A program made the translations under genes and the position numbers. This document shows, piece after piece, positions 16,289-63,511 of a DNA stretch of 64,000 nucleotides. This DNA is from Sipunculus nudus (Eukaryota > Annelida > Sipuncula > Golfingiida > Sipunculidae): positions 14,201,839-14,265,838 of the forward strand of contig CM049316.1 of NCBI GenBank assembly GCA_026874595.1. The letters run 5' to 3'. The number at the start of each line of letters is the position of its first letter. Position 1 is the first letter of the stretch. The notes below the pieces were generated by a model. That model searched no databases. It saw only the letters and a list, made by a program, of their open reading frames with translations, and was not told the origin of the DNA.

Positions 16289-17180
16289 GCAAATTTAAAA
16301 TCATTTTTAAAAAATAATTTAAAAAAGTCGGGTTTGGAAAAAATAACAGGACAGTCCTGCATCCATAATCCCAGAGTTTTTTATGTTTTCTTGGCACGAC
16401 GCACAGGAATATGCTCCCTGTTTATATTTAAAAGAATTTTGGCCATGAACAGGGAATTAAAAAGGAACATGTTTGTGGAACGAAAACACACCTTGACCTG
16501 TCGTGTCGCCGTTCATTATAATCGCATTCTATGACCTCAAATTGATGAAAAGTGTCAGCGGTTCTGCCCTCTATTGCAAGTTGGCCGACACTGGTCACAG
16601 GGTGCGGGTATAGGTCATGCTTACGTGACAATCCAGTTCTATTAAACAACTAAACTTATGCATTGTTTTAAACAAAAAAAAAAACATATAATGGAGACTT
16701 TATACCAGGGTCTCAGCTGATTATACTGACTAGGACAAATTATTATTCCTGTTTCTGCTTTCTCATACACGTACATGTATTGATAATAGCCTTCAGTGAC
16801 GCTAATTGTTCATACAATACCATTGTGCGGGCAGTACAAGTAACAGTAAGCCTAACATTAGTTTATATGCATGTCATACTGTTTCCAGCTGAAAAAATTA
16901 CTTGACGTACTTGCGAATTTACATTTATTTCTAGACGTAAATTGTTCTCTTATCAACTAATTTGTATATCATTTCATGTGAAAACCCACCAGAATATTTC
17001 AAGGATAGATTTTCACATCCCATCAAAACTAATGCAAGATATGCAATTAAATATAATTTTACATATTTGTCCGTAAACTAGCATTTCATATCCTATAAAA
17101 AGCCATAACACATATCACATATCACAGTTTCAATGAAACTCCCACAGTAAGTATGAGTTTAAATGACAGTGGATATAAAA
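16288..17180. other. non-coding stretch
   Basis: No gene recognised. The sequence leads directly into the satellite array. Confidence 0.45.
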
Positions 17181-20165
17181 CATGGTGGTCAATGGACGTA
17201 CCATACAGTGACTGAACAAAGTATAACGCTGTGAACACTAGACGTACCATACAACGACCGCAGAAAGTATAATACGGTGGACATTAGACGTACCATACAA
17301 CGACCGCAGAAAGTATAACACGTGGACATTGGACGTACCATACGTTACCGCAGAAAGTATAACAGGGTGGACATTGGACGTACCATACGGTGACCGAAGA
17401 AAGTATAACACGGTGGACATTGGACATACTATACGGTGACCGGAGAAAGTATAACAAGGTGGACATTGGACGTATCATACGTAACCGCAGAAAGTGTAAC
17501 ACGGTGGACATTGGACGTACCATACGGTGACCGGAGAAAGTATAACACGGTGGACATTGGACGTACCATACGGTGACCGGAGAAAGTATAACACGGTGGA
17601 CATTGGACGTATCATACGTTACCGCAGAAAGTATAACACTGTGGACATTGGACGTACCATACGGTGACCGGAGGAAGTATAACACGGTGGACATTGGACG
17701 TACCATACGGTGACCAGAGGAAGTATAACACGGTGGAGATTGGACGTATGATACGTTACCGCAGAAATTGTAACACGGTGGACATTGGACGTACCATACG
17801 GTGACCGCAGATAGTATAACACGGTTGACATTGGACGTACCATACGTTACCGCAGAAGGTATAACACGGTGGACATTGGACGTACCATACGTTACCGCAG
17901 AAAGAATAACACGATACCATACGGCGACCGGAGAAAGTAAAACACGGTGGACATTGGACGTACCATATAACGACCGCAGAAAGTAAATTATGGTGGACAT
18001 TAGACGTACCATACAACGACCGCAGAATGTATAATACGGAGGTTATTGGACGTATCATATGTACCGCAGAAAGTATAACACGGTGGACATTGGACGTACC
18101 ATACGGTGACCGGAGGAAGTATAACACGATACCATACGGCGACCGGAGAAAGTAAAACACGGTGGACATTGGACGTACCATATAATGACCGCAGAAAGTA
18201 AAATACGGTGGACATTAGACGTATCATACAACGACCGCAGAATGTATAACACGGCGGACATTGGACGTATCATACGTTACCGCAGAAAGTATAACACGGT
18301 GGACATTGGACGTACCATACGGTGACCGGAGGAATTATAACACGGTGGACATTGGACGTACCATACGGTGACCGGAGAAAGTATAACACGGTGGACATTG
18401 GACGTATCATCCGTTACCGCATAAAGTGTAACACGGTGGACATTGGATGTACCATACGGTGACCGCAGATAGTATAATTCGGTTGACATTGGACGTACCA
18501 TACATTACCGCAGTAGGTATATCACGGTGGACATTGGACGTATCATACGTTACCGCAGAAAGTATAACACGGTGGACATTGGACGTACCATACGGTGACC
18601 GGAGGAAGTATAACACGGTGGACATTGGACGTACCATACCGTGACCGGAGAAAGTATAACACGGTGGACACTGGACGTATCATCCGTTACCGCAGAAAGT
18701 GTAACACGGTGAACATTGGATGTACCATACGGTGATCGGAAAAAGTAAAACACGGTGGACATTGGACGTACCATACGGTGACCGGAGAAAGTATAACACG
18801 GTGGACACTGGACGTATCATCCGTTACCGCAGAAAGTGTAACACGGTGGACATTGGATGTACCATACGGTGACGGCAGATAGTATAATTCGGTTGACATT
18901 GGACGTACCATACATTACCGCAGTAGGTATATCACGGTGGACATTGGACGTATCATACGTTACCGCAGAAAGTATAACACGGTGGACATTGGACGTACCA
19001 TACGGTGACCGGAGGAAGTATAACACGGTGGACATTGGACGTACCATACCGTGACCGGAGAAAGTATAACACGGTGGACACTGGACGTATCATCCGTTAC
19101 CGCAGAAAGTGTAACACGGTGAACATTGGATGTACCATACGGTGATCGGAAAAAGTAAAACACGGTGGACATTGGACGTACCATACGGTGACCGGAGAAA
19201 GTATAACACGGTGGACACTGGACGTATCATACGTTACCACAGAAAGTGTAACACGGTGGACATTGGATGTACCATACGGTGACGGCAGATAGTATAATTC
19301 GGTTGACATTGGACGTACCATACATTACCGCAGTAGGTTTATCACGGTGGACATTGGACGTACCATACGGTGATCGGAAAAAGTAAAACACGGTGGACAT
19401 TGGACGTACCATACGGTGACCGGAGAAAGTATAACACGGTGGACATTGGACGTATCATACGTTACCGCAGAAAGTATAACACGGTGGACATTGGATGTAC
19501 CATACGGTGATCGGAAAAAGTAAAACACGGTGGACATTGGACGTACCATACGGTGATCGGAAAAAGTAAAACACGGTGGACATTGGACGTACCATACGGT
19601 GACCGGAGAAAGTATAACACGGTGGACATTGGACGTATCATACATTACCGCAGAAAGTGTAACACGGTGGACATTGGATGTACCATACGGTGATCGGAAA
19701 AAGTAAAACACGGTGGACATTGGACGTACCATACGGTGACCGGAGAAAGTATAACACGGTGGACATTGGACGTATCATACGTTACCGCAGAAAGTATAAC
19801 ACGGTGGACATTGGACGTACCATACGGTGTTCGGAAAAAGTAAAACACGGTGGTCATTGGACGTACCATACGGTGACCGGAGAAAGTAAAACACGGTGGT
19901 CATTGGACGTACCATACGGTGACCGGAGAAAGTAAAACACGGTGGACATTGGACCTACCATACGGTGACCGGAGAAAGTAAAATAGGGTGGTCATTGGAC
20001 GTACCATACAGTGACCGGAGAAAGTAAAACACGGTGGACATTGGACGTACCATACGGTGACAGGAGAAAGTAAAACACGGTGGACATTGGACGTACCATA
20101 CGGTGACCGGAGAAAGTAAAATAGGGTGGTCATTGGACGTACCATACGGCGACCACAGAAAGTAC
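17181..20165. repeat. 45/46-bp satellite array with 410-bp higher-order repeat
   Basis: About 65 tandem units. The common core is GGTGGACATTGGACGTA. Two unit classes alternate: a 46-bp class with CCATACGGTGACCGGAG and a 45-bp class with TCATACGTTACCGCAG. Between about 18,400 and 19,350 a block of nine units (five of 46 bp and four of 45 bp, 410 bp) is repeated slightly more than twice with private variants such as AGTATAATTCGGTTGAC. From about 19,500 the array becomes more uniform, with 46-bp units and an AAAGTAAAACACGG variant. All open frames on both strands across this block are satellite translations. No centromeric or regulatory function can be read from it. Confidence 0.95.
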
Positions 20166-22133: not shown

Positions 22134-22843
22134 TACCCCCGTTGAGCTGAAACATTATTAATTTTATCTATTTCTAATTTTCCCATTTTTCCATTATTAC
22201 ACTCTGCTTGGTGACAGCACTGAGAAACCTCCCAAATTGCTTTGCCTGTGAAGCATGGCCTTCCCATAAGCCCGAAGAGCTAAGCCTGGGTTGTGGTTGA
22301 CCGTGAACAAAGAAGATCTGCTATGACTGCAGACGAGTGTAGATTTGCCCCAGGTTTTGGGAATTTTTTTCTCTCTAAATCTCTAACTTTGAGTTGGAAA
22401 AGAGAAACTTTTTTAGATTTCCCCTGATTATAAGGATGGCTCTGAACCCTGGGTTAACCGTAAAACTGAAGTTTTGTTTGAAAAAGAACGTCTACAATAC
22501 ATTCCTTTACCGAGACTGATATAGGCACCGAGAATGCCCGCGTGTGAACCAGTTGCGTCACCTGACCATGCACCCTTATGTATTCACTGTCTGTATTACT
22601 GGAGAGGATTTTTCGTTTTCGATATTGTACAGATTACAATCAGATTACGACGTATTGTTAGGACAGGAAGCTTATAAAATAAGCGGTAGTAGGGCGATTT
22701 AAACATGTTTTATAGCTGTGATATAAATATACATTTAACAAACATAATTAGTACTTTTTAAACAATTGGCTTGACCAGGGCACTGAATCACGAAAGAATT
22801 CCACAATACTTCACGGAGTGACCTATTTACTACGCTGCGAAAT
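22134..22843. other. non-coding stretch
   Basis: No gene or repeat family recognised. Confidence 0.45.
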
Positions 22844-23155
22844 CATGAGCGGGTCGCTAACTTAAATCTTTAGATGGTTAGACTAACAATTAAGACGTAT
22901 TAGTTCGGTGACATCATTGTGGCAACACATATAGCTGTATAATAAAGTATAATTTTATCATTAAATGCAGTATTGATAATAATTCAGGTGAAGCCCCCTC
23001 ATGAGCGGGTCGCTAACTTAAATATTTAGATGGTTAGACCAACAATTAAGACGTATTAGTTCGGTGACATCGTTGCGGCAACACATATAGCTGTATAATG
23101 AAGTATAATTTTATCATTAAATGCAGTATTGATAATAATTCAGGTGAAGCCCCAG
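22844..23155. repeat. 156-bp tandem duplication
   Basis: A unit starting CATGAGCGGGTCGCTAACTT at 22844 is repeated from 23000 with very few substitutions (for example ATCATTGTGG versus ATCGTTGCGG) and ends with CAGGTGAAGCCCC in both copies. The near identity indicates a recent duplication. It lies about 0.8 kb beyond the stop codon of the neuropeptide gene, so it could fall in its 3' flank. Confidence 0.9.
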
Positions 23156-23920
23156 GCTAATGGAGCAATCGGAAGTCCCCAGCGGTAGCTGTATTTGGGC
23201 GAGGATTATTGCCCGCTGTGAGCTCCGGTTGGCGGAATACCACCATATACAAATCATACGTTATTACCGGATATCATGACATTTTGATCAGAACCGTGAT
23301 AGCAATCAGCGGACGCCTTGGCGCCTATCATGGTATTTATCCAAATCTACTGCAGTTACGTTCGGTTCACTAAGAGTACATTTATTCTGTGGCCTTCAGA
23401 GTCTTTAAATAATGAATTTGGACACGCTGGCCTTAAGGGGTTAAACTACATTAAGCACTGTATCATTCATTCCATTGCCCTGACAACGTAGAACTTTCAC
23501 CCATCAGCACACATTTAAATAGATACAATGTCAATATAACAGTAATAGGTTTTACTCAGAATTCAAAGGTCCACACGGTCCACAGGCTAACAATGGCAGA
23601 AACAAAGCATTGACACCAATTCAAGGCCGAGTCCAAAAGATGTCTCTTGTTTACAAAATGGACAATTAGTAGCCCATACGACACTATAATCTGCTAATAC
23701 CCTCATAAAATTAATATAATGTGCTTTTATACACACAGAACAGGGCATGATATGGTTCCGTTCATGTTATGCTTACATGGGAGGGCTTAACAAGCAGTAT
23801 CACAGTTAACTAAACATATTTAAAGTTTAAAATAGCAGGCGACCGGCGTTACCTGTGGTGCTTGTGCCGATAAAAGATGCGGTTGTTTGATTTTCTGCTT
23901 GGCTGAATGCTGCAGTCTCG
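23156..23920 (-). other. probable 3' flank or 3' UTR of the neuropeptide gene
   Basis: No other gene is present. On the minus strand this follows the TAA stop of the neuropeptide precursor. A canonical AATAAA lies at 23381-23386, about 540 bp past the stop. The transcript end is not otherwise defined. Confidence 0.35.
23381..23386 (-). terminator. candidate polyadenylation signal AATAAA
   Basis: TTTATT on the plus strand reads AATAAA on the minus strand, about 540 bp downstream of the neuropeptide stop codon. It is the first canonical hexamer I could find; an upstream non-canonical signal could be used instead. Confidence 0.3.
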
Positions 23921-24931
23921 TTACGCGTAAAAGCTGGCGCGGTTTTCTCTTCCGCCAAGTAAGAAGTCCAGGAATTCTCTGGCTTCCATGTTCTCTGGCA
24001 CGGAGCGTTTGGACCCTAGAAGAAAGTCCATGTAGCCTGGTCGATGGTTCTTCTTTCCGAACAGAAACTCTCTGTAGCCCGATAACCTAGCCCTTTTCAA
24101 GTCTTCCAAGTTGTTCATGCCGTAGTTAGGGTACTCGGGTAAACTTCGTTTGCTGCGTTTTACCTCTTCCACACTTCCTGTGCTTGCGTCCTTCTTTTCC
24201 ATGCCTTGACCGAGCAAAAATTCCAGGAATTCTGGATCTACCCGCTTACCAAGCAAAAATTTTACATAGTCCTCTTTGTTTGCGAATCTTTTTCTTGCGC
24301 CGAGAAGGAATTTAAGATAATCGGAGTTTGGGTTTCGCTTACCCAGGACAAAGTCTATGTAGTCTTGAGCATTCTTTTTCCCCATCAAAAAGTCCATATA
24401 CTCCTTGCTGCGTTTTGCTGCTTTAATATCCATATCATTTTCGTCACGCTTGCCCAGTAGAAAATCCACGTAATTCTTTCCATCTCTTTTGCCCATCAAA
24501 AAGTCCAAATAGTCTTTACCTCTCTTTCCCAACAGAAAATCGACATAATCTTTCCCCCTTTTTCCCATTAGGAAATCAAGGTAATCTTTACCTCTTTTGC
24601 CCATTAAGAAGTCTACGTAATCCTTTCCACGTTTTCCCATCAGGAAATCCATGTAGTCCTTTCCCCTTTTTCCCATTAGAAAGTCCATATATTCTTTTCC
24701 GCGCTTACCCATTAGAAAGTCCATGTATTCTCGTGATCGTTTCCCCATTATGAAATCCATGTAGTCTTTTCCTCTTTTCCCCATCAGGAAATCCATGAAG
24801 TTCTGTCTTGAAGGGGTTCTTTTGTCATCTTCCTGTGTTTGTTCCTCGGCACAGCGAGACTGCGTGACCACTAGCAACACAAGTGCGCTTACCAGCCACC
24901 AGTAGAAGTTCATGGTTCCGGATACTGGCAT
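23921..24931 (-). CDS. neuropeptide precursor with repeated YxDFLM-amide peptides
   Basis: A secreted prohormone of 336 residues (330 if the second Met, at plus-strand 24911-24913, is used). The second Met is preferred because it starts a typical signal peptide directly (MNFYWWLVSALVLLVV, with predicted cleavage after about Cys-Ala). After an acidic spacer ending DDKR there are about nineteen copies of a short motif, [YF]-x-[DEK]-F-[LIV]-[ML], most in a 12-residue period. Fourteen are followed directly by GKR or GKK, the signal for dibasic cleavage and C-terminal amidation, giving for example GKDYMDFLM-amide. Later copies diverge: GARKR, GQGMEKK, GSKR and a terminal GGR. Two spacers lack the motif (around DIKAAKR and SLPEYPNYGMNN). 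Asp or Glu usually precedes the Tyr, a context suited to Tyr sulfation. The reading frame is uninterrupted in one exon. I cannot place the peptide in a named family with certainty. Confidence 0.93.
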   Translation of the reverse strand: MPVSGTMNFYWWLVSALVLLVVTQSRCAEEQTQEDDKRTPSRQNFMDFLMGKRGKDYMDFIMGKRSREYMDFLMGKRGKEYMDFLMGKRGKDYMDFLMGKRGKDYVDFLMGKRGKDYLDFLMGKRGKDYVDFLLGKRGKDYLDFLMGKRDGKNYVDFLLGKRDENDMDIKAAKRSKEYMDFLMGKKNAQDYIDFVLGKRNPNSDYLKFLLGARKRFANKEDYVKFLLGKRVDPEFLEFLLGQGMEKKDASTGSVEEVKRSKRSLPEYPNYGMNNLEDLKRARLSGYREFLFGKKNHRPGYMDFLLGSKRSVPENMEAREFLDFLLGGRENRASFYA

Positions 24932-25161
24932 TGATGCGCGTATTTACCTCGTCTTAGCGTTTTCACCAGATTTACTTCCAAGCAGCAATATCAGAAGCTT
25001 CTGTGGGGAATGGACTTGCGGACGAAACCACCTTGATATATTTTAGCCAGAGATAAATCAGTCCACGTGTGCGAGGTCTAAAGTATTTCTTAGGTATTTG
25101 CATTCACAGACTGCAGCTTAACGGCTGGCAGTTGTAGTGGCAGACTTCCTACGCGCAAGAG

Positions 25162-31382: not shown

Positions 31383-32026
31383 CTGGAGACGACTGCAGGT
31401 CATCTACCATCATCTGGTTCATCCTGGAGACAACTGGCCGTCATCTGGATCATCCTGGAGACAACTGTCCGTCATCTGGTTCATCCTGGAGACAACTGTC
31501 CGTCATCTGGTTCATCCTGGAGAAAACTGACCGTCATCTGGATCATCCTGGAGACGACTGACCGTGATCTAGTCTTTCCTGGAGACAACTGACCGTCACC
31601 TGAATCATCCTGGAGACAACTGACCGTCATCTGGATCATCCTGGAGACAACTTACGGTCATCTGGTTCATCCTGGAGACAACTGACCGTCATCTGGTTTA
31701 TCCTGGAGACAACCTACGATCATCTGGTTCATCCTGGAGACAACTGACCGTCATCTGGATCATCCTGGAGACGACTGACCGTCATCTGGATCATCCTGGA
31801 GACAACTTACCGTCATCTGGTTCATCCTTCGCAACTGACGGTCATCTGGTTCATCCGGGAGACAACTGACGGTCATCTGGTTCATCCTGGAGACAACTGA
31901 CCGTCATCTGGATCATCCTGGAGACAACTGACCGTCATCTGGTTCATCCTGAAGACAACTGACGGTCATATGGTTCATCCTGGAGACAACTGACGGACAT
32001 CTGGTTCATCCTGGGGACAACTGACC
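31383..32026. repeat. 31-bp minisatellite
   Basis: About 21 tandem units built on GGAGACAACTGACCGTCATC plus a TGGTTCATCCT or TGGATCATCCT half. The GGTTCATC/GGATCATC variants alternate irregularly, and one unit near 31830 is shortened. No frame is kept open, so it is non-coding. Confidence 0.93.
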
Positions 32027-32974: not shown

Positions 32975-34190
32975 GACCACAGACCAGACAACAACGACAA
33001 AAAAGAACAAACAGCACACGCGCCAGATAACAACGACAGCAACAACAAACATTCAATAGGCATGAACAACAACACACAACATACAGTCGAGATAACAACG
33101 TCAACAGCAACAAACATCCCACAGACGAGATAACAACGTCAACAGCAACAAACAACACACAGGCCAGATAACAATATCAACTGCAACAAACAACACACAG
33201 GCCAGATAACAACGTCAACAGCAACAATCATCCCAAAAACTTGTTAACAAAGGGAACAGCAACAAACAACACACAGCCAAGATAACAACATAAACTGCAA
33301 CAAACAACACACAGGCCAGATACCAACGAGAACAGCAACAAACATCCCACAGGCCAGACAATAACGACAACAGCAACAAACAAATCACAGACCAGATAAC
33401 AACGACAACAGCAACAAACAACCCATAGGCCAGATTACAACGACAAAAGCAACAAACATGCCGCACCAGCTAACAACGTCAACAACAAACAACACCCAGG
33501 CCACAAAACAATGACAACAGCAACAAGCAGTCAACGATTCAGATAATAAGGTCAACAGCAACAAACATCCCACAGGTCAGATAACAACGACAAAAGCAAC
33601 AAACATGCCGCACCAGATAACAACGTCAACAACAAACAACACCCAGGCCACAAAACAATGACAACACCGACAAGCAGTCAACGATTCAGATAATAAGGTC
33701 AACAGCAACAAACATCCCACAGGTCAGATAACAACGACAAAAGCAACAAACATGCCGCAGGCCAGATAACAACGACAAAGCAACAAACATGCCGCAGGCC
33801 AGATCACAACGACAAAAGCAACACACATGCCGCAGGCCAGATAACAACGACAAAAGCAACAAACATGCCGCAGGTCAGATAACAACGACAAAAGCAACAC
33901 ACATGCCGCAGGCCAGTTAACAACGACAAAAGCAACAAACATGCCGCACCAGATAGCAACGTCAACAACAACAACAAACAAATCACAGGCTAGATAACAA
34001 CGACAACAGCAACAAACAACCCACATACCAGATTACAACAACAACAGCAAAAACAACCCACGGACCAGATCACAACGTCAACAGCAACAAAGATCCAACA
34101 TGCCAGATAACAATGAAAACAGCAACAAACATCCAAATGGCCAGATAACAACATCAAAAGCAACAAACAACCCACGGACCAGATAACAGA
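32975..34190. repeat. 38-bp minisatellite with 147-bp higher-order repeat
   Basis: About 32 units on the pattern CCAGATAACAACGACAACAG plus CAACAAACAT and a short variable end (CCCACAGG or GCCGCAGG). Between about 33,458 and 33,750 a 147-bp four-unit block is duplicated with the same private changes (for example AAGCAGTCAACGATTCAGAT). The Cys/Leu-rich frames on the minus strand are translations of the repeat. Confidence 0.93.
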
Positions 34191-35794: not shown

Positions 35795-35930
35795 TATCTG
35801 AGCTTGAATGCTCCCCCTCAGCCAAGGTCTCACAAGTTCTCTCCTCAGCGTCTTATACCCTTCCGCCAGAGGTCGTTTCTACTCAAAATAAAACTCTATC
35901 ATGTTAGACACTGTGGGAAGGCCGGAACAA
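35795..35930 (-). repeat. dispersed repeat R4, inverted fragment
   Basis: CTTCCGCCAGAGGTCGTTTC followed by TACTCAAAA and, further on, CACTGTGGGAAGG is the reverse complement of the right part of the direct repeats at 62,458-62,706 and 63,275-63,511. This gives three copies in the window. Confidence 0.7.
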
Positions 35931-37189
35931 ATTGTCTCAATTGTCAAATACATTCTGTTTACATTTCACATGCGCATGCTAACAAAATATTACTAATTTC
36001 TTGAAATCCTTACCACGAAAAATCAATGTTTATGTATTTTGTCTTGGGACATTTCTTAGCGAACATATTTGAACAGAATACATTTCCATCTCTACAAGAC
36101 TATATACCTACGCCGCTGGTGTATGTGGAATTGGAGTACATTGTGAGGGTTGAATTTCATTGCCATAAACCCTAACAGGAGAGTCGTGCGGAGTGCGAAC
36201 ATATTGTTGCATCACATGTTTAGCCCGATTTCTTCTGTTTTCTTCAAACAATAAACAGAAGGAGATTACCTAATTGATAAACTGATGTTATTGATATTTC
36301 TTTTTTCTTCAATAGAAAGGCCCACGGCTATTGAGTGGCATTTTCTACGGTATGAATATGAGGGTAAGCGTACAGTACGAATGATATTTTATTAATAACC
36401 CTTCTACATAACCCTTTTGTTTGTATTCAAGGTGCTAGGAATAAATCTAGGAATCATGGGATTGAATTGCTGAGGTGTTATCAAGATTTTCACTTCTTTT
36501 TCCTTTTAGCCCTGGGCGGGGTTTACGAACAGGAAACTCTCCCTATTCATTTTCATAAAAATATGTCTTTTCGGTATTTTATTACCTATAAAGAGGATTC
36601 AGAGATAAATCAACTAAACTTAAGATTTAGTAAACGGAAATAAGAGAAAAGGAAGGATAATTTATCTGTTTTCTTGCACTTTACGGTTATTCTAATCCAA
36701 TTGCGTGAAGTCAAAGTTGTATATTTCGTCCAAACCCAAGGAATGTCCAATATGTGCTAAGTTAATCCGACGTTTAAAAATATATAGCTCCCCACGCCGT
36801 CCTTAAAAATTGAGTTTATGCAACCTTGAACCACGGTATCTACAGCCAATTAACCAGAAATGGATGCACATTTACTTCAGGAAAGAGTGTCAAAAGGTTT
36901 TGACCATTATGATTATGACCAGCGATATGTTATATATAAAGGACAATAATTAAGTTTCCTACAGTGTCGGGGTACGTTCAATGAACTGCTTGTTATGGAT
37001 TGGTAGTGGCTTTATTTTAATAGTGTCTTGGCTGCTCTGGCCCTTGTGGGATTGTGGGGATTATAAATATACCAGAAAGTCGTTTAGACAAAAACCCTGT
37101 AGCACCAATAACACTGGTCGTGTTTGTAAGATGGACATTCACGAAAAAGGCTTTATATTCCCAGAAATATTTTGTTAGTGATAACGGGG
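35931..37189. other. non-coding stretch
   Basis: No gene recognised; the small frames at 36981-37178 and 37054-37353 run into the minisatellite that follows. Confidence 0.45.
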
Positions 37190-38040
37190 TGATTATGATG
37201 GCGGGATGGTTTGTGATAACGAGATGGTTTCTGATAGCGTGGTTGGTTTGTGATAGTAGGTTGGTTTGTGATAGCGGGGTGGTTGGTGATAGTGTGGTGG
37301 TTATGATAGCGAGATGGTTTGTATTAGCGGGGTGGTTTGTGATAGCAGGGTAGTTGTGATAGGAGGGTGATTTGTGATAGCGGGGTGGTTTGTGATAGCA
37401 GGGTAGTTTGTGATAGGAGGGTGGTTTGTGATACCGGGGTGGTTTGTGATAGCGGGGTGGTTTTTTAAAGCGGGGTGGTTTGTGAAAGCGGGGTTGTTTG
37501 TGATAGCGGGCTGGTTTGTATTAGCGGGGTTTGTTTGTGATAGCGGGCTGGTTTGTATTAGCGGGGTGGTTAGTGATAGCGGGCTGGTTTGTGATTGCGA
37601 GATGGTTTGTGATAGCGGGCTGGTTTGTGATAGCGGGGTGGTTTGTGATAGCGGGAAGGTTTGTGATAGCGGGGTGGTTTGTGATAGCGGGGTGGTTGGA
37701 AATAGTGGGATGATTATGATAGCGGGATGGTTTGTGATAGCGAGATGGTTTTTGATAGCGGGGTGGTTTTGATGGCGGGATGGTTTGTGATAGCGAGATG
37801 GTTTCTGATAGCGGGGTGGTTTGTGATAGTGGGTTAGTTTGTGATAGCGGTGTGGTTTGTGATAGCGGGATGCTTTGTGATAGCGGGTTGTATTTTGATA
37901 GCGGGGTGGTTTGTGATAGCAGGGTGGTTTGTGATAGCGGGGTGGTTTGTGATAGGAGGGTGGTTTGTGATAGCGGGGCGGTTTGTGATAGAGGGGTGGT
38001 TTGTGATATCAGGGTGGGGTTTGACTGTGGAGTGGTCGTT
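37190..38040. repeat. 18-bp minisatellite
   Basis: About 47 units of TTTGTGATAGCGGGGTGG and variants (CGGGCTGG, CGAGATGG, CAGGGTGG, AGGAGGGTGG). Because 18 is a multiple of three, long frames stay open on both strands (six-residue FVIAGW repeats on plus, AITNHP on minus, up to 177 codons). They lack a signal peptide, a conserved start or any non-repeat domain and are taken as non-coding. Confidence 0.93.
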
Positions 38041-39444: not shown

Positions 39445-40775
39445 AACATCAGCTTGGTTTCCTTAATATCCCAGTTATCATCATTCAATAACGGGTAATG
39501 AGCAGGAATATCTGGATCAACATCCGATTGATCATCATTCAATAACGGATCAGGATCCGAAATATCTGGATCAACATCCGAATGGTCATCATTCAATATC
39601 GGATCAGGATCTGCAATATCTGGGTCAACATCCAATCGGTCATCATTCAGAACGGATCAGAATCCGAAATATTTGGATCAACATCCGATTGGTCATCATT
39701 TAATAACGGATCAGGATCCGCAAAATTTTGGTCAACATCCGATTGGTCATCATTTAATAACGGATCAGGATCCGCAATATCTGGATCAACATCCAATCGG
39801 TTATCATTCAGACCGGATCAGGATCCGCAATATCTGGATCAACATCCAATCGGTCATCATTCAGAACGGATCAGAATCCGCAATATTTGGATCAACATCC
39901 GATTGGTCAACATTCAATAACGGATCAGGATCCGCGATATCTGGATCAACATCCCATTAATCAGCATTAAATACCGGATCAGGATCTGCAAGATCTTGAA
40001 TAAGATCCGATTGATCATCATTCAATAACGGATCAGGATCCATAATATTTAGATCAACATCCGATTGGTCATCACTTAATAACGGATCAAGATCCGCAAT
40101 ATCTGGATCAACATCCGATCGGTCATGAATAATAACGGATCAGGATCTGCAATATTTGGATCAACATCCGATTGGTCATCATTAAGAACGGATCAGAATC
40201 CGCAATATTTGGATCAACATCCGATTGGCCATGATTCAATAACGGATCAGGATCTGCAAGAATTTGATCAAAATCCGATTGATCATCATTCAATAACGGA
40301 TCAGGATCCGCAATATTTGGATCAACATCCGATTGGTCATCATTCAGAACGGATCAGAATCCGCAAAATTTGGATCAACATCCGATTGGTCAACATTCAA
40401 TAACGGATTAGGATCCGCAATATATGGATCAACATCCCATTGATCAGCATTCAATACCGGATCAGGATCTTCAAGATCTTGATCAAGATCCGATTGATCA
40501 TCATTCAATAACGGATCAGGATCCATAATAATTGGAACATCATCGGATTAGTCATCATTCAATAACGGATAAGGATCTGCAGTATCTGGATCAACGTTGG
40601 ATTGATCATTATTTAATAAAGGATCAGGATTGGTAATTTCTGGATCAACATCCGATTGGTCATTATTCAATAATGGAACAGGACCTGCAAGATCTGGATC
40701 AACATCCGATTGACCATCATTTAATAATGGATCAGCATTCGCAATGTCTGGATCAACGTCGGTGAACATCATGGA
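39445..40775. repeat. 54-bp minisatellite
   Basis: About 24 units containing GGATCAACATCCGATTGGTC, then ATCATTCAATAACGGATCAG and GATCCGCAATATCT. The period is 18 codons, so acidic frames (DPDP..LLNDDQSDVDPD) stay open on the minus strand in pieces (39384-39635, 40344-40526, 40548-40829) and glutamine-rich frames on the plus strand. The pieces are separated by frameshifts and stops, and there is no signal peptide, so I treat it as non-coding. Confidence 0.93.
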
Positions 40776-48010: not shown

Positions 48011-51000
48011 TTTTTAGCTTAGTTGACTGTAAGTCATCTGAGCTATAGCGATCACTCTTTGTCCGTCGTCCGTCCGGCCGTCCGGCCATCCGGCCGTCTG
48101 TCCGTTAACAAGGCACAAATTGTAACCACTGGACCTGGAATCTTCTTATACTTTACATCCAGAGTGGTCCATGAAAAATCTCCTGGGAAACCTGGAATTA
48201 GGTCTCTGTTACCCATATCCTTTGAGCTATAGGGCCATAAAGTACCCCCCAGAATAGTCTAAAATTTCATACAAAAACTTCAATATCTCATTAACTACAT
48301 CACTGATGGTCATGATTTTTGGCATACACATTGATCATGAGATGTTCCATCAGTTCCTGCAGACTAGTGGCGCCACCTTATTTTTTTTATTTTTTACGAA
48401 TTTTTTTCTCTATTTTTGAGACCTTAAAAATGTGGACATCTGTTAACAGGGCACAAATCGTTAAGCCTGGACCTTGAATCTTCATTCTTGACATTCTAAG
48501 AGACTTATGAAAAGTCTCCATGGAAACCAGAAATTAGGTCTCTGTTACCCATATCCTTCGAGCTATGTGGCCCCAAAGTACCCCCCAGAATAGTGAAAAA
48601 TTTCATACAAAAACTTCAATATCTGATTAACTATATTCACTGATGGTCATGATTTTTGGCATACATATTGATCATGAGATGTTCCATCAGTTCCTGCAGA
48701 CTGGTGGCGCCACCTGTATTTTTTTTTTACCAATTTTTATCTCTATTTTTGAAACCTTTAAAAATGTGAACACCTATTAACAGGGCACAAATCTGAAAGA
48801 CTGTACCGAGAATCTTCTTTCTTGACATTCTGAGAGATTTATGAAAAGTCTCCATGGAAACCAGAAATTAGGTCTCTGTTACCCATATCCTTCAAGCTAT
48901 AAGGCCCCAAAGTACCCCCAGAATAGTAAAAAATTTCATACAAAAACTTCAATATCTTATTAACTACATCACTGATGATCATGATTTTTGGCATACATAT
49001 TCATCATGAGATGTTTCATCAGTTTCTGCAGACTGGTGGCGCCACCTGTATTTTTTATTTTTTTTACTTATTGTTTTCTCTATTTTTGAGACCTTTAAAA
49101 ATGTTAACATCTGTTAACAGGGCACAAATTGTCAAGACTGGACCTAGAATCTTCATTCTTGACATTCTGAGAGACCTATGAAAAGTCTCCATGGAAACCA
49201 GAAATTAGGTCTCTTTTACCCATATCCTTTGAGCTATGGGGCCCCAAAGTACCCCCCAGAATAGTAAAAAATTTCTTTAAAAAAACTTCAATATCTCATT
49301 AACTACATCATTGATGGTCATGATTTTTGGCATACATATTGATCATGAGATGTTTCATCAGTTTCTGCAAACTGGTGGCGCCACCTGTATTTTTTTATTT
49401 TTTACTTATTGTTTTCTCTATTTTTGAGACCTTTAAAATTAACAGCGGCACAAATCGTAAAGACTGGACCTAGAATCTTCATTCTTCACATTCTGAGAGA
49501 ACAATGGAAAGTCTCCATGAAAACCTGAAATTAGGTCTCTGTTAGCCATATCCTTTGAGCTATGGCACTCCAAAGTACAGCTCAGAATAATGGAAAATTT
49601 GATACAAAAGCTGAAGTATCTGAACAACTAATGCAGAGATCACCATAATTGTTTGCATGGATATTGATCATGGAGTGTTTCATGAGTTTCCGCAGCCTGG
49701 GTAGGCCACCTCTATTTTTTTTATTTTTTACAAATTTTTTTCTCTATTTTTGAGACCTTTAAAAATGTGAACATCTGTTAACAGGGCACAAATCGTAAAG
49801 ACTGGACCTACAATCTTCATTATTGACATTCTGAGAGGCCTATGAAAAGTCTCCATGGAAACAAGAAGATAGGTCTCTGTTACCCATATCCTTTGAGCTA
49901 TGGGGCCCATAAGTAACCCCCAGAATAGTCAAAAATTGCATAAAAAAACTTAAATATCTCATTAACTACATCACTGATGGTCATGAATTTTGGCATACAT
50001 ATTGATCATGAGATGTTTCATCAGTTTCTGCAGACTGGTGGCGCCACCTTTATTTTTCAAATTTTTACAATTTTTTTCTCTATTTTTGAGACCTTTAAAA
50101 ATGTTAACATCTGTTAACAGGGCACAAATTGTCAAGACTGGACCTAGAATCTTCATTCTTGACATTCTAAGAATTTTATGAAAAGTCTCCATGGAAACCA
50201 GAAATTAGGTCTCTGTTACCCATACCCTTTGAGCTATGGCACTCCAAAGTACAGCTCAGTATTATGGAAAATTTGATACAAAAGCTGAAGTATCTGATCA
50301 ACTAATGCAGAGATCACCATAACTGTGTGTATGGATATTGATCATGGAGAGTTTCATCAGTTTCTGCAGCCTGGTGGCACCACATATTTTTCCGGGCTTT
50401 TTTTTCGAAATTTTTTCTCTATTTTTGAGACCTTTAAAGATATGAACATCTGTAAACATGGCAAAAATCGTAACAACTGGACCTAGAATCTTCATTCTTT
50501 ACACACAGGGAGACCCATGAAAAATCTCCATGGAAACCAGAAATTAGGTCTCTGTTACCCATATCCATTAAGCTGTATGGCTCCAAAATACCCCCAAGAA
50601 TAATGAAAAATTTGATACAAAAACTCCAGTATCTCAATAACTACAATACTGGTCACATATTTTTCCGGGCTTTTTTTCGAATTTTTTTCTCTATTTTTGA
50701 GACCTTTAAAGATATGAACATCTGTAAACATGGCAAAAATCGTAACAACTGGACCTAGGATCTTCATTCTTTACACACAGGGAGACCCATGAAAAATCTC
50801 CATGGAAACCCGAAATTAGGTCTCTGTTACCCATATCCATTAAGCTGTATGGCTCCAAAATACCCCCAAGAATAATGGAAAATTTGATACAAAAGCTGAA
50901 GTATCTAAACAACTAATCCAGAGACCACCGTGCTTCTTTGCATTGATATTGACCATTAACTGTTTTATTAGTTTCTGCAGACTGGTGGAGCCACCTGTAT

Positions 51001-51187
51001 TTTTTTTAAAGTTTACGCATTTTTTCTCTTGTTTTGAGATATATTAATACAGACACAATCTCAGCCTGTTGGTTAATCTGTTTGATGCTTCAGTTGAATG
51101 GTTATATACTACCATTCAGATGATAAAATTTCCTTTTGCAAATCTCTTCCAAGTCAGCTGAGCGTCATGACCCATGGGTCACTTGTT
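48011..51187 (+). mobile_element. Helentron-like (HINE/pearl-type) element A with 335-bp internal repeats
   Basis: The left end is TTTTTAGCTTAGTTGACT followed by AAGTCATCTGAGCTATAGCG. The right end carries AGTCAGCTGAGC (51152-51163, an inverted copy of the left end), the perfect palindrome TGACCCATGGGTCA (51168-51181) and a terminal CTTGTT. About 140 bp of right-end sequence is shared with element B at 57.07-57.21 kb. The interior is about nine tandem units of roughly 335 bp (one short, about 272 bp), each starting near CTGTTAACAGGGCACAAAT. Subterminal inverted repeats, central tandem repeats and a 3' hairpin are the known plan of non-autonomous Helentrons, including bivalve pearl-type elements. 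No protein is encoded; small frames are repeat translations. Confidence 0.65.
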
Positions 51188-55394: not shown

Positions 55395-55491
55395 CCCGGA
55401 TTTAAAGCCTGCTTGGAAGAACTAGACTGGTCCCATGCCTTCTTTCTTTCCTTTCGTATCCCCGTCGTTGAGCCGCCCTCCAATATTGGTT
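55395..55491 (+). repeat. dispersed repeat R2, copy 1, left part split by element B
   Basis: GAACTAGACTGGTCCCA, CGTATCCCCGTCGTTGA and GCCGCCCTCC match, in order, the R2 copies at 57.27-57.62 and 60.2-60.71 kb. The match breaks exactly where element B starts and resumes after it (ATCGAATTCATTTTATTG at about 57219-57236), so element B inserted into this copy. Confidence 0.7.
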
Positions 55492-57213
55492 TTTTAGCTC
55501 AGCTGACTGAAAGTCATCTGAGCTATAGCGATCACTCTTTGTCCGTCGTCCGTCTGTCCGTCTGTCCGTCCGTTAACCAGGCACAAATCGTAACCGCTGA
55601 ACCTAGAACCTTGTAACTTGGGATTCTGAGAGGTCCATGAAAAATCTCCTTGGAAACCAGAAATTAGGTCTCTGTTACCCATATCCTTCGAGCTATGGGG
55701 ACCTGAAATTCGGCATGCGTATACATTCTATATAGCTTTCTTGATTTTATGACAGGTGGCGCCACCTACATTCTCATTTACGCTGATGACATCCAAGCTC
55801 ATATTTCTGGAAACCGTTTGACCGATCGGGCCAAAATTTTGCATGTATATTGATCTAACATAGCTCTTTATCATACGCTAAACTGGTGGCGCCACCTGCA
55901 ACCATTTTTGCACAGTGTCTGTCTGTTTGTCTGCTGTGCAATAATGTCACTCATATCTCGGCAGTGGTTTGACATATCTGCCTAAAATTTTGCAGTTTTA
56001 TACATCCTGGATAGCTTTCTTGATTTTATGACAGGTGGCACCACCTACATTCACGTTCACGCTGATGACATCTAAGCTCATATCTCGGGAACTGTTTGAC
56101 CGATCGGGCCAAAATTGTGCATGTGTATAGATCTAACATAGCTCTTTATCATACACAAAACTGGTGGCACCACCTGCAACCATTTTTGCACAGCGTCTGT
56201 CTGTTTGTCTGCCGTGCAATAAAGTCACTCTTATCTTGGCAGTGGTTTGACATATCTGCCTAAAATTCTGCAGTTTTATACATCCTGGATAGCTTTCTTG
56301 ATTTTATGACAGGTGGCGCCACCTTTATTCTAGTTTATGCTGCACACATCCAAGCTCATATCTCGGGAACCGTTTGAACGATTGGGCCAAAATTTTGCAT
56401 GTGTATAGATCTCACATAGGTCTTTATCATACACAAAACTGGAGGGGCCACCTGCAACCATTTTTGCACATTTTGCACAGCGTCTGTCTGTTGGTCTGCC
56501 GTGGCCTTAAATCACTCATTTCTCTGTAGTGGTTTGACATAAATAACTGCCTAAAACTTTGCAGGTTTATACATCCTGGATAGCTTTCTTGATTTTATGA
56601 CAGGTGGCGCCACCTACATTCTAGTTAACGCTGCACACATCCAAGCTAATATCTCAGGAACCATTTGACCGACTGGGCCAAAATTGTGCTTGTGTTTAGA
56701 TCTCACATAGGTCTTTATCATACACAAAACTGCAACCATTTTTGCACAGCGTCTGTCTGTTTGTCTGCCGTGGGCTAAAATCACTCATATCCATGTAGTG
56801 GTTTGACTTTTCTGCCTAAAATTTTGCATATGTATACAACTTGGCCAGCTTTCTGGATTTGTGGTAGGTTGCACAACCTACATACACATTTAGGCTGCAG
56901 ACATCCATGCTAATATGCAACATACCTCACTCTGTTTCCCCTTGCCACTCAATCCATGCCTCACTTCACTCTGATTTTGGCAGATACACGTAGTCACTTG
57001 TCGGCTACCCGTATTCTAGTTTTTATTCTAGTATTTAAAGTTTACACATTTTTTCTCTATTTTCCAGATATATAAATACAGACTAAATCTTGGCCTGTTG
57101 GTTAATCTGTTTGATGCTTCAGTTGAATGGGTATCTACCATTCTGATGATAAAATTTCCTTTTGTGAATCTCTTCCCAGTCAGCTGAGCGTCATGACCCA
57201 TGGGTCACTTGTT
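55492..57213 (+). mobile_element. Helentron-like (HINE/pearl-type) element B with 280-bp internal repeats
   Basis: Same ends as element A. The left end contains GCTCAGCTGACTG (55497-55509) and AGTCATCTGAGCTATAGCG. The right end contains the exact inverse CAGTCAGCTGAGC (57177-57189), the palindrome TGACCCATGGGTCA (57194-57207) and CTTGTT. The interior differs from A: four to five units of about 280 bp, each with CTTGATTTTATGACAGGTGG and ACCATTTTTGCACAGCGTCT. The element sits inside an R2 repeat. The insertion point lies in a T-rich site without an evident target duplication, as expected for Helentrons, which insert between T residues. Confidence 0.68.
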
Positions 57214-62029: not shown

Positions 62030-63247
62030 AAGTGCCGGTGTCCGCTAGTTTTTTCCGGGATAATTTTTTTTATACAGGTGAAGCAGTGTAAACCTGTCTG
62101 GTCCAAAGATTGCAGGTGCTAAAGAATAAAACCTCACCTTGCTTTGATTTTGTAATAATTTAAAATATGACAAAACAGGTTACAGCATGAACGACTTTTT
62201 CATTGCCAGAACAAAGAGTGTAGGCCTAATATGAATGATGAACTCTGGCTCGAATAATAAGCCAGGCAAACTGATGACATCAGTCCATTGAAGGTGACGA
62301 TCATTGTGACGTCATGCACATTGTCTCATCACACTGCGCAGACTCGGACTCTCAAGAGTACGACACTGCTGTCTTGGAATTGTTGGAGTCAAAATCTGAC
62401 TCCAATAATGCACCGCGCGGCAGTCTGACTATTAGCTGATACTATTAGCATAATATGTACGGGGCTGAACTTCGGCAAGTTACTTAAGGGAACCCACAAT
62501 TTTAGCTCAGCTGACGTCTGACAGTTAGCTGATAAGTAACCCGGTATATATGTGCTGTAGTTACGGTTAATCGTCCGTCCGTCCGTTAATTTCGTGTTAA
62601 GAGAATTTGGTACCAGGCTACACTTGTCAAGTAGTTCGGTCCTTCCCACAGTGCCCAAACAGAAGAGATTCGTTTTGAGTAGAAACGACCTCTGGCGGAA
62701 GGGTGAAACATGTACACTGACAGCGGAAATACACAAGTAGTGAAAAGGAGCCAATGTAGTCCGTTAAAATGCGTTGAATTTTGTGTAAAGTAGTTCTATG
62801 TCATGTAAAACGAATTTACTTTGCGACTCTTTTGCCTTATTAATGCTGAAATACCGTGGTTGGCGTCTTATCGGCACTGCTGGACAGTACATTCCTCCAT
62901 GGTACACTTTCAGTGTCTATGGCTGCGTTTTGTGTTCGTACGTTAGACAACAGTGACGTCACAAAGACGTCACAATGTTCGGTCGCGCGTCACCTTCAAT
63001 TGACTGACGTCATATGCTTGACTGGCTTTTTTATTATCAGTTCTCAGACAAGGAATAATTCGTAAACGCTGTATTGTGTTTTGTCATATTTTAGATTGTC
63101 TCATACAAAATCAAAACAAGGTAAGGCATTACTTTTTACGCAGGTAGTCGGCGGAATAGCTCCTGCAACATTTGGACAAGAAAGGTTTACACTGCTTTAC
63201 ACGTATGAAAAATTATCCCAGAAAAACATGTTGACACGGGTACTGGG
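62030..63247. repeat. inverted repeat with about 300-bp arms
   Basis: The left arm (about 62030-62335) and right arm (about 62943-63247) are diverged reverse complements: for example AAGCAGTGTAAACCTGTCTG on the left and its counterpart CAAGAAAGGTTTACACTGCTT on the right, and TGACGTCA-containing blocks at both inner ends. The spacer of about 600 bp contains the first copy of direct repeat R4. The frames 62389-62754 and 62856-63065 are in repeats and have no recognisable domain. Confidence 0.7.
62458..62706 (+). repeat. dispersed repeat R4, copy 1
   Basis: Starts ACGGGGCTGAACTTCGGCAA and includes TTTTAGCTCAGCTGACGTCT, which resembles the left end of elements A and B, then a CGTCCGTCCGTCC run and GAAACGACCTCTGGCGGAAG at the right end. 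It matches copy 2 over its whole length with a few small indels. Confidence 0.8.
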
Positions 63248-63274: not shown

Positions 63275-63511
63275 CGGGGCTGAACTTCGGCAAGTTAAGG
63301 GTACTCACAATTTTAGCTCAGCTGACGTCTGACTATTAGCTGATAAGTAACCCGGTATATATGTGCTGTAGTTATGGTTAATCGTCCGTTAATTTCGTGT
63401 TAAGAGAATTAGGTACCAGGCTACACTTGTCAAGTAAATCGGTCCTTCCCACAGTGCCCAAACAGAAGGAATTCGTTTTGAGTAGAAACGACCTCTGGCG
63501 GAAGGGTGATT
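63275..63511 (+). repeat. dispersed repeat R4, copy 2
   Basis: Direct copy of 62458-62706, about 95 percent alike by eye, with a shorter CGTCCG run. A third, inverted fragment lies at 35.8-35.93 kb. Confidence 0.8.

What the first reader, a model, noticed from the sequence alone, without database searches (positions are those of the whole stretch)
23921..24931. Neuropeptide precursor with about nineteen YxDFLM-type peptides, family not recognised
Seen: signal peptide, dibasic sites, fourteen GKR/GKK amidation signals, and a 12-residue period with consensus GK[DE]Y[MVL]DFL[ML]GKR. Known: this layout is diagnostic for multi-copy neuropeptide prohormones. Inference: the mature peptides (such as GKDYMDFLM-amide) match none of the common molluscan families I can recall (FMRFa, myomodulin, luqin, tachykinin, SCP, APGWa, pedal peptide, buccalin), so this may be a poorly described or lineage-specific family.
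Basis: partly seen in the sequence, partly recalled or inferred. Interest (0 to 1): 0.85.

Follow-up and report, generated by a model that had tools for sequence, protein, structure and literature searches.

The report
Fulicin/EFLGamide-type neuropeptide precursor gene
This looks like an intact animal gene for a precursor that would be cut into about fourteen amidated brain peptides; they resemble the already named fulicin/EFLGamide family, invertebrate relatives of thyrotropin-releasing hormone, more than a new family.

Summary
Minus strand 23921-24931 is one uninterrupted ORF (336 aa; 330 from a better-placed second Met) with a signal-peptide-like start, 18 copies of a [YFL]x[DEK]F[LIV]xG motif plus one decayed unit, and exactly 14 GKR/GKK signals. 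Over nine fixed-period 36-nt units, silent sites are saturated (pS 0.97) while replacement sites are conserved (pN 0.13), so the peptides were under selection.

'Family not recognised' does not hold. The oyster Crassostrea gigas fulicin precursor encodes peptides with the signature (F/Y)S(E/D)FL(M/o)amide, most MS-detected, and treated there as counterparts of annelid EFLGamide, a TRH-type receptor ligand (PMC8398477 section 17; PMC4772807 passages). The window's Y[MVL]DFL[ML]amide fits except at position 2: strict 0 of 14, position 2 free 8 of 14, terminal residue also free 13 of 14.

One difference: oyster and annelid peptides of this kind share a gene with FVamide (Mytilus inhibitory) peptides; here a leader and all copies lie in one exon, and no such peptide signal was found elsewhere in the window. 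Species, transcript and receptor are untested.

The parts
23921..24931 (-). Precursor ORF, 336 aa, no intron within the coding sequence; probable true start at the second Met (24913), which has A at -3 (ACCATG)
   Evidence: start choice is inference from the sequence
24851..24913 (-). Signal-peptide-like segment MNFYWWLVSALVLLVVTQSRC
   Evidence: read directly from the translation; no predictor run
24485..24808 (-). Nine 36-nt units in strict 12-residue period, consensus GK[DE]Y[MVL]DFL[ML]GKR
   Evidence: pS 0.969, pN 0.128
24452..24472 (-). Tenth motif copy YVDFLLG, GKR-terminated, one residue out of period
24410..24445 (-). Decayed unit DENDMDIKAAKR: dibasic site kept, motif and amidation Gly lost
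   Evidence: translation
23954..24400 (-). Eight further, mostly more divergent motif copies: four with GKR/GKK (YMDFLM, YIDFVL, YVKFLL, YREFLF), four with altered ends (GARKR, GQGMEKK, GSKR, GGR)
24092..24190 (-). Spacer DASTGSVEEVKRSKRSLPEYPNYGMNNLEDLKR with dibasic sites but no G-dibasic amidation signal
   Evidence: translation
23381..23386 (-). AATAAA 534 nt after the stop codon, candidate poly(A) signal
   Evidence: a single consensus match, not evidence of use

Best explanation
The ORF is a prepropeptide of the protostome fulicin/EFLGamide (TRH-type) kind. Shown by the sequence: a hydrophobic N-terminal leader, tandem units bounded by dibasic sites, a Gly before 14 of them, and peptide-level conservation. 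Inferred from established prohormone biology: the leader sends it to the regulated secretory pathway; prohormone convertases cut after KR/KK; carboxypeptidase trims the basic residues; PAM turns the Gly into an amide, giving 14 peptides (13 distinct sequences; 9 of 14 are nonapeptides), such as GKDYLDFLM-NH2 and GKDYVDFLL-NH2, with a common [YF]x[DE]F[LVI]x-NH2 end in 13 of 14. Inferred from relatives: the peptides act on a G-protein-coupled receptor orthologous to the annelid EFLGamide/TRH receptor, the many copies raising the yield of near-equivalent ligands. Control of reproduction-linked muscle or neurons is the best guess, from what is reported for snail and oyster fulicins.
For: Architecture and selection. 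Family: oyster fulicin signature (F/Y)S(E/D)FL(M/o)amide, most peptides MS-detected, and protostome core E-[L/F]-[L/F/V] (PMC8398477 section 17 read); FSEFLGamide is the ligand of a Platynereis TRH-type receptor (PMC4772807 and PMC5818035, passages). Window peptides: 13 of 14 fit [FY]x[DE]F[LVI](x) at the end and 8 of 14 fit [FY]x[DE]FL(M); 0 of 14 fit any of the 15 other C-terminal patterns tried, most of which I wrote from recall. Rough background chance of [FY]x[DE]FL at the end of a peptide: 3e-5, a pattern chosen after the fact. Role: reproduction-linked actions of fulicin reported in PMC8398477.
Against: Strict oyster signature 0 of 14, because position 2 is M/V/L/I/R and never S; strict Glu core only 1 of 14; annelid EFLG, arthropod E[FL]L and nematode ELF endings 0 of 14 each. 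No full-length relative could be aligned: the oyster sequence is in a figure and no animal sequence database was available. Short neuropeptide motifs can converge (so argued in a PMC6188537 passage). Gene organisation differs from oyster and Platynereis. The name 'fulicin-like' is also used for LRNFVamide in Biomphalaria, so the label is loose; the main text of the pan-mollusc survey PMC6425005 names neither fulicin, EFLG nor TRH. A 2024 paper states that EFLa/EFLGa-TRH homology rests only on receptor deorphanisation and that function is elusive (PMC11039832 passage).
Confidence: 0.8

Rival explanations
1. A lineage-specific neuropeptide family that converged on a DFLM-amide end and signals through a different receptor.
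For: Position 2 never S, Asp instead of Glu in most copies, C-terminal residue M/L/F, own leader and no FVamide-type signal elsewhere in the window.
Against: The oyster signature itself allows D, Y and terminal M, so for most copies the difference reduces to one variable position; terminal L or F and the K of YVKFLL remain outside it.
Confidence: 0.15
2. Another named family: annelid FVMamide, phoronid LKFL, or CCK/sulfakinin-like peptides with a sulfated Tyr.
For: FLM-amide resembles FVM-amide; one copy reads LKFL; D/E next to Tyr is a plausible sulfation context (inference).
Against: 0 of 14 end FVM or DF/RF; the LKFL string occurs in 1 of 18 copies, and that copy (GARKR) lacks a canonical amidation site. 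FVMa is described as having orthologs only in annelids and LKFL as phoronid-specific; their sequences were not seen.
Confidence: 0.04
3. Not a neuropeptide gene: a decaying or chance tandem-repeat ORF, as many minisatellites surround it.
For: Large satellite arrays lie in the same window.
Against: ORF far longer than in 50 simulated windows; silent-site saturation with amino-acid conservation; leader and cleavage grammar.
Confidence: 0.01

Closest known systems
Crassostrea gigas fulicin precursor (LOC105328755, XP_034305797.1)
   Same: Amidated peptides with aromatic-x-acidic-Phe-Leu-(Met) ends, most MS-detected there (PMC8398477 section 17 read)
   Different: Oyster peptides have Ser at position 2, include one QGEWVamide, and come from a gene that by alternative splicing also makes Mytilus inhibitory peptides. 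Window: position 2 M/V/L/I/R, no EWV peptide in the precursor, leader in the same exon. Oyster sequence itself not seen
Annelid EFLGamide (Platynereis FVa/EFLGa precursor; ligand FSEFLGamide)
   Same: Aromatic-x-acidic-Phe-Leu core near an amidated end
   Different: Ends in Gly-amide; the Platynereis EFLGa region lacks its own start Met and signal peptide and lies after a stop codon behind FVa peptides (PMC3890597 passage)
Snail fulicin and fulyal (Achatina)
   Same: Fulicin gives the family its name; the recalled ends are NEFV-amide and AEFL-amide
   Different: Pentapeptide with a D-amino acid (sequences and its place at position 2 are recalled); nothing here bears on D-residues
Arthropod EFLamide/ELLamide and nematode ELFamide (TRH orthologs)
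   Same: Acidic-hydrophobic-hydrophobic-amide end
   Different: Shorter ends; 0 of 14 window peptides have these exact endings

Membership tests
Multi-copy neuropeptide prohormone (generic) | Signal peptide, dibasic-bounded repeats, amidation Gly | tested here: met
   14 G[KR][KR] sites, 18 motif copies, hydrophobic leader; leader judged by eye only
Multi-copy neuropeptide prohormone (generic) | Expression and processing in neurons | not testable with these tools
   no transcriptome or MS data available
Fulicin/EFLGamide/TRH-type (protostome) | Peptide end aromatic-x-[E/D]-F-[L/V]-(x)-amide | tested here: met
   13 of 14 with position 2 and terminal residue free and Ile allowed; 8 of 14 ending FL(M). 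This relaxed form is my own, drawn from the oyster and annelid peptides
Fulicin/EFLGamide/TRH-type (protostome) | Exact oyster signature (F/Y)S(E/D)FL(M/o)amide | tested here: not met
   0 of 14: Ser at position 2 never present. Ser is a feature of the oyster and Platynereis peptides, not of snail fulicin (FNEFV, recalled)
Fulicin/EFLGamide/TRH-type (protostome) | Published protostome core E-[L/F]-[L/F/V] | tested here: inconclusive
   1 of 14 with Glu, 13 of 14 if Asp and Ile are allowed; the oyster signature in the same paper allows Asp
Fulicin/EFLGamide/TRH-type (protostome) | Linkage to Mytilus-inhibitory/FVamide peptides in one gene (oyster, Platynereis, Capitella) | tested here: not met
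   no P-x-F-[VIL]-G-[KR] or F-[VI]-G-dibasic site in the six frames outside 23900-24950; sites split by introns or outside the window would escape. Whether this linkage defines the family is doubtful
Fulicin/EFLGamide/TRH-type (protostome) | Activates a TRH/EFLGamide-type receptor | not testable with these tools
   needs a receptor assay
Glucagon/secretin (Pfam Hormone_2) | Single longer peptide hormone matching the profile | tested here: not met
   whole-protein score 22.3 against cut-off 21.2, but 0 stretches pass on their own at E 10 and the best piece is 13 residues; taken as a sum of weak repeat matches
Other amidated families (FMRFa, luqin/RYa, myomodulin, SCP, APGWa, MIP, buccalin/AstA, leucokinin, tachykinin, CCK/sulfakinin, FVRIa, FVMa, SGLVa, enterin, allatotropin) | Their C-terminal motif | tested here: not met
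   0 of 14 for each of 15 patterns, most written from recall

The most novel reading that the evidence does not exclude
A fulicin/TRH-type gene that is uncoupled from the FVamide (Mytilus inhibitory peptide) gene it shares in oyster and annelids: a signal peptide and 18 copies in one exon, and ligands shifted to an extended DFLM/DFLL-amide end, possibly with a matching change in the receptor.
Probability: 0.3. Interest if true: 0.45.

Novelty: new member of a known kind. Interest (0 to 1): 0.3.

Why it matters
It turns an apparently orphan precursor into a testable set of TRH-type ligands. If the stand-alone organisation is real, it bears on how the strange annelid/oyster arrangement (two peptide families from one gene, by alternative splicing or proposed stop readthrough) arose or was lost.

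Tried and rejected
Literal motif searches of the paper library gave nothing relevant in the rows listed (2 of 2 papers, 2 of 2, 20 of 100 listed). A search for FSEFL, YSDFL and similar strings (30 of 34 listed) led to neuropeptide reviews but no new family. The link came when EFLGamide was followed. Searches (40 of 47 listed; 15 of 93 listed) added no paper with a closer precursor among the rows shown. Finds in main texts gave no precursor sequence in the Patinopecten, Pinctada/Crassostrea 2014, Biomphalaria, Haliotis, Urechis and pan-mollusc papers. Reishia clavigera has fulicin precursors, with fragments seen by MS; its sequences are in supplements, which I could not open. In nemerteans, brachiopods and phoronids EFLGamide/TRH propeptides were reported only in nemerteans (PMC8557429, section 5 read).

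Relatives by sequence: viral contigs none; genome contigs 8 pattern matches, 0 confirmed; phages 18 records, all below 60% identity, best E 1e-4, 14 of 18 annotated as tail, tail-fibre or adhesin genes, which I take for repeat or composition matches without having tested it; PDB one hit at E 0.8. Pfam at E up to 10: five families; DUF5905 and Hormone_2 just above their cut-offs with no passing stretch, PBECR4 (E 0.00066, one stretch) below its cut-off, two weaker. Rfam at gathering scores: 0 matches in the window. Neighbours: 123 of 330 ORFs (394 before dropping those over minisatellites) scanned with Pfam; four families matched one ORF each, best RasGAP E 0.0011 before allowing for 123 scans; I did not take any as a gene. 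RNA fold round the start: z 0.87, unremarkable. Retrocopy idea: no A-run follows the AATAAA in the stretch printed.

Full report
What is there. The minus strand at 23921-24931 holds one ORF of 336 codons. Its second Met (24913) sits in ACCATG and begins MNFYWWLVSALVLLVVTQSRC, a typical leader by eye. Then come KR-bounded units. A script found 18 copies of [YFL][MVLIR][DEK]F[LIV][MLFI]G and 14 G[KR][KR] signals. Copies 1 to 9 keep a strict 36-nt period, copy 10 has one extra residue, then a decayed unit, then eight further, mostly more divergent copies with a spacer among them. Of the 18, four lack a canonical amidation signal. The last (FLLGGR) could give a Gly-amide after monobasic cleavage, which would resemble the annelid Gly-amide end; this is speculation.

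Is it more than chance? The stop-to-stop ORF of 340 aa compares with a maximum of 233 in 50 first-order Markov windows. For nine fixed-period units, taken without regard to amino acids, pS is 0.969 and pN 0.128; the other two sense frames contain stops and give pS 0.29 and 0.13, the antisense strand 0.26. In 300 random synonymous recodings with this ORF's codons pS averaged 0.934 (sd 0.058), 212 of 300 at or below the observed value: silent sites are saturated overall, so I infer that the array as a whole was not recently copied or homogenised and that the peptides have been held by selection. Third-position excess: permutation P 0.004. An earlier figure over the 18 copies (pS 0.92, pN 0.18) is biased because copies had been chosen by amino acids; I do not rely on it.

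What family. Exact-motif searches of the literature gave nothing relevant in the rows listed. The oyster paper PMC8398477 (section 17 read in full; a figure legend and passages) states that Cragi-fulicin peptides have the signature (F/Y)S(E/D)FL(M/o)amide, most of them or their extended forms detected by MS, and relates them to annelid EFLGamide and to protostome TRH orthologs with core E-[L/F]-[L/F/V]. PMC4772807 and PMC5818035 (passages) report FSEFLGamide as ligand of a Platynereis TRH-type receptor. PMC3890597 (passages) calls annelid FLa and FVa/EFLGa fulicin-related. The window peptides match the oyster signature except at position 2 and, in some copies, at the last residue: strict 0 of 14; position 2 free 8 of 14; terminal residue also free and Ile/Val allowed 13 of 14; the odd one is YVKFLL. 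The terminal Met, which made the peptides look unmatched, is part of the oyster signature.

Membership. The relaxed peptide-end feature is met, the strict oyster signature is not, and linkage to FVamide peptides is not seen in the window. I therefore call it a probable member, 'fulicin/EFLGamide-type', and not a proven ortholog. Working like one (amidated ligands of a TRH-type receptor) is the most likely mechanism; the receptor step is inference. Against it: the label 'fulicin-like' is used loosely (LRNFVamide in Biomphalaria); the main text of the pan-mollusc survey names neither fulicin, EFLG nor TRH; a sea-urchin TRH paper says the EFLa/EFLGa-TRH link rests on deorphanisation only and the function is elusive (passage).

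Difference from relatives. In Platynereis the EFLGa region has no start or leader of its own, and stop readthrough is proposed. In oyster a third splice form makes fulicin. Here a leader and the 18 copies lie in one exon. This could be a stand-alone state, as I recall for snail fulicin, or a change in this lineage; I could not tell.

Host and context. GC is 38.1% and CpG observed/expected 0.83. No neighbouring gene was identified among the 123 of 330 ORFs scanned, so the phylum is unknown; lophotrochozoan is likely only by the peptide family. The own-genome search was busy in all eight tries.

Verdict. A sound observation with an over-called novelty. Real precursor about 0.98; fulicin/EFLGamide/TRH type 0.8; separate family 0.15.

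Noticed in passing
window 17179-20164: Large minisatellite, 46-bp unit, about 65 copies, with higher-order 91- and 137-bp periods.
   Followed up: no
window 48104-50915 and 55491-57213: Long-period arrays (336-, 272- and 278-bp units); several copies of the first array are 81-83% identical to 55491-55700 (one 52-bp piece 96%), and 51005-51187 is 90% identical to 57034-57213, so the two regions share a repeat family.
   Followed up: partly
window 31406-32026, 33065-34188, 37174-38017, 39468-40757: Further minisatellites with 31-, 38-, 18- and 54-bp units.
   Followed up: no
window 22843-23153: A 156-bp tandem duplication (96% matches) about 230 bases beyond the gene's candidate poly(A) signal.
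   Followed up: no
window 35857-35934, 62628-62704, 63440-63507: Short dispersed repeat, the first copy inverted relative to the others, 84-85% identical to each, possibly a SINE or MITE.
   Followed up: no
window 24410-24445: Decayed repeat unit DENDMDIKAAKR keeps its length and dibasic site but lost the motif and the amidation Gly.
   Followed up: partly
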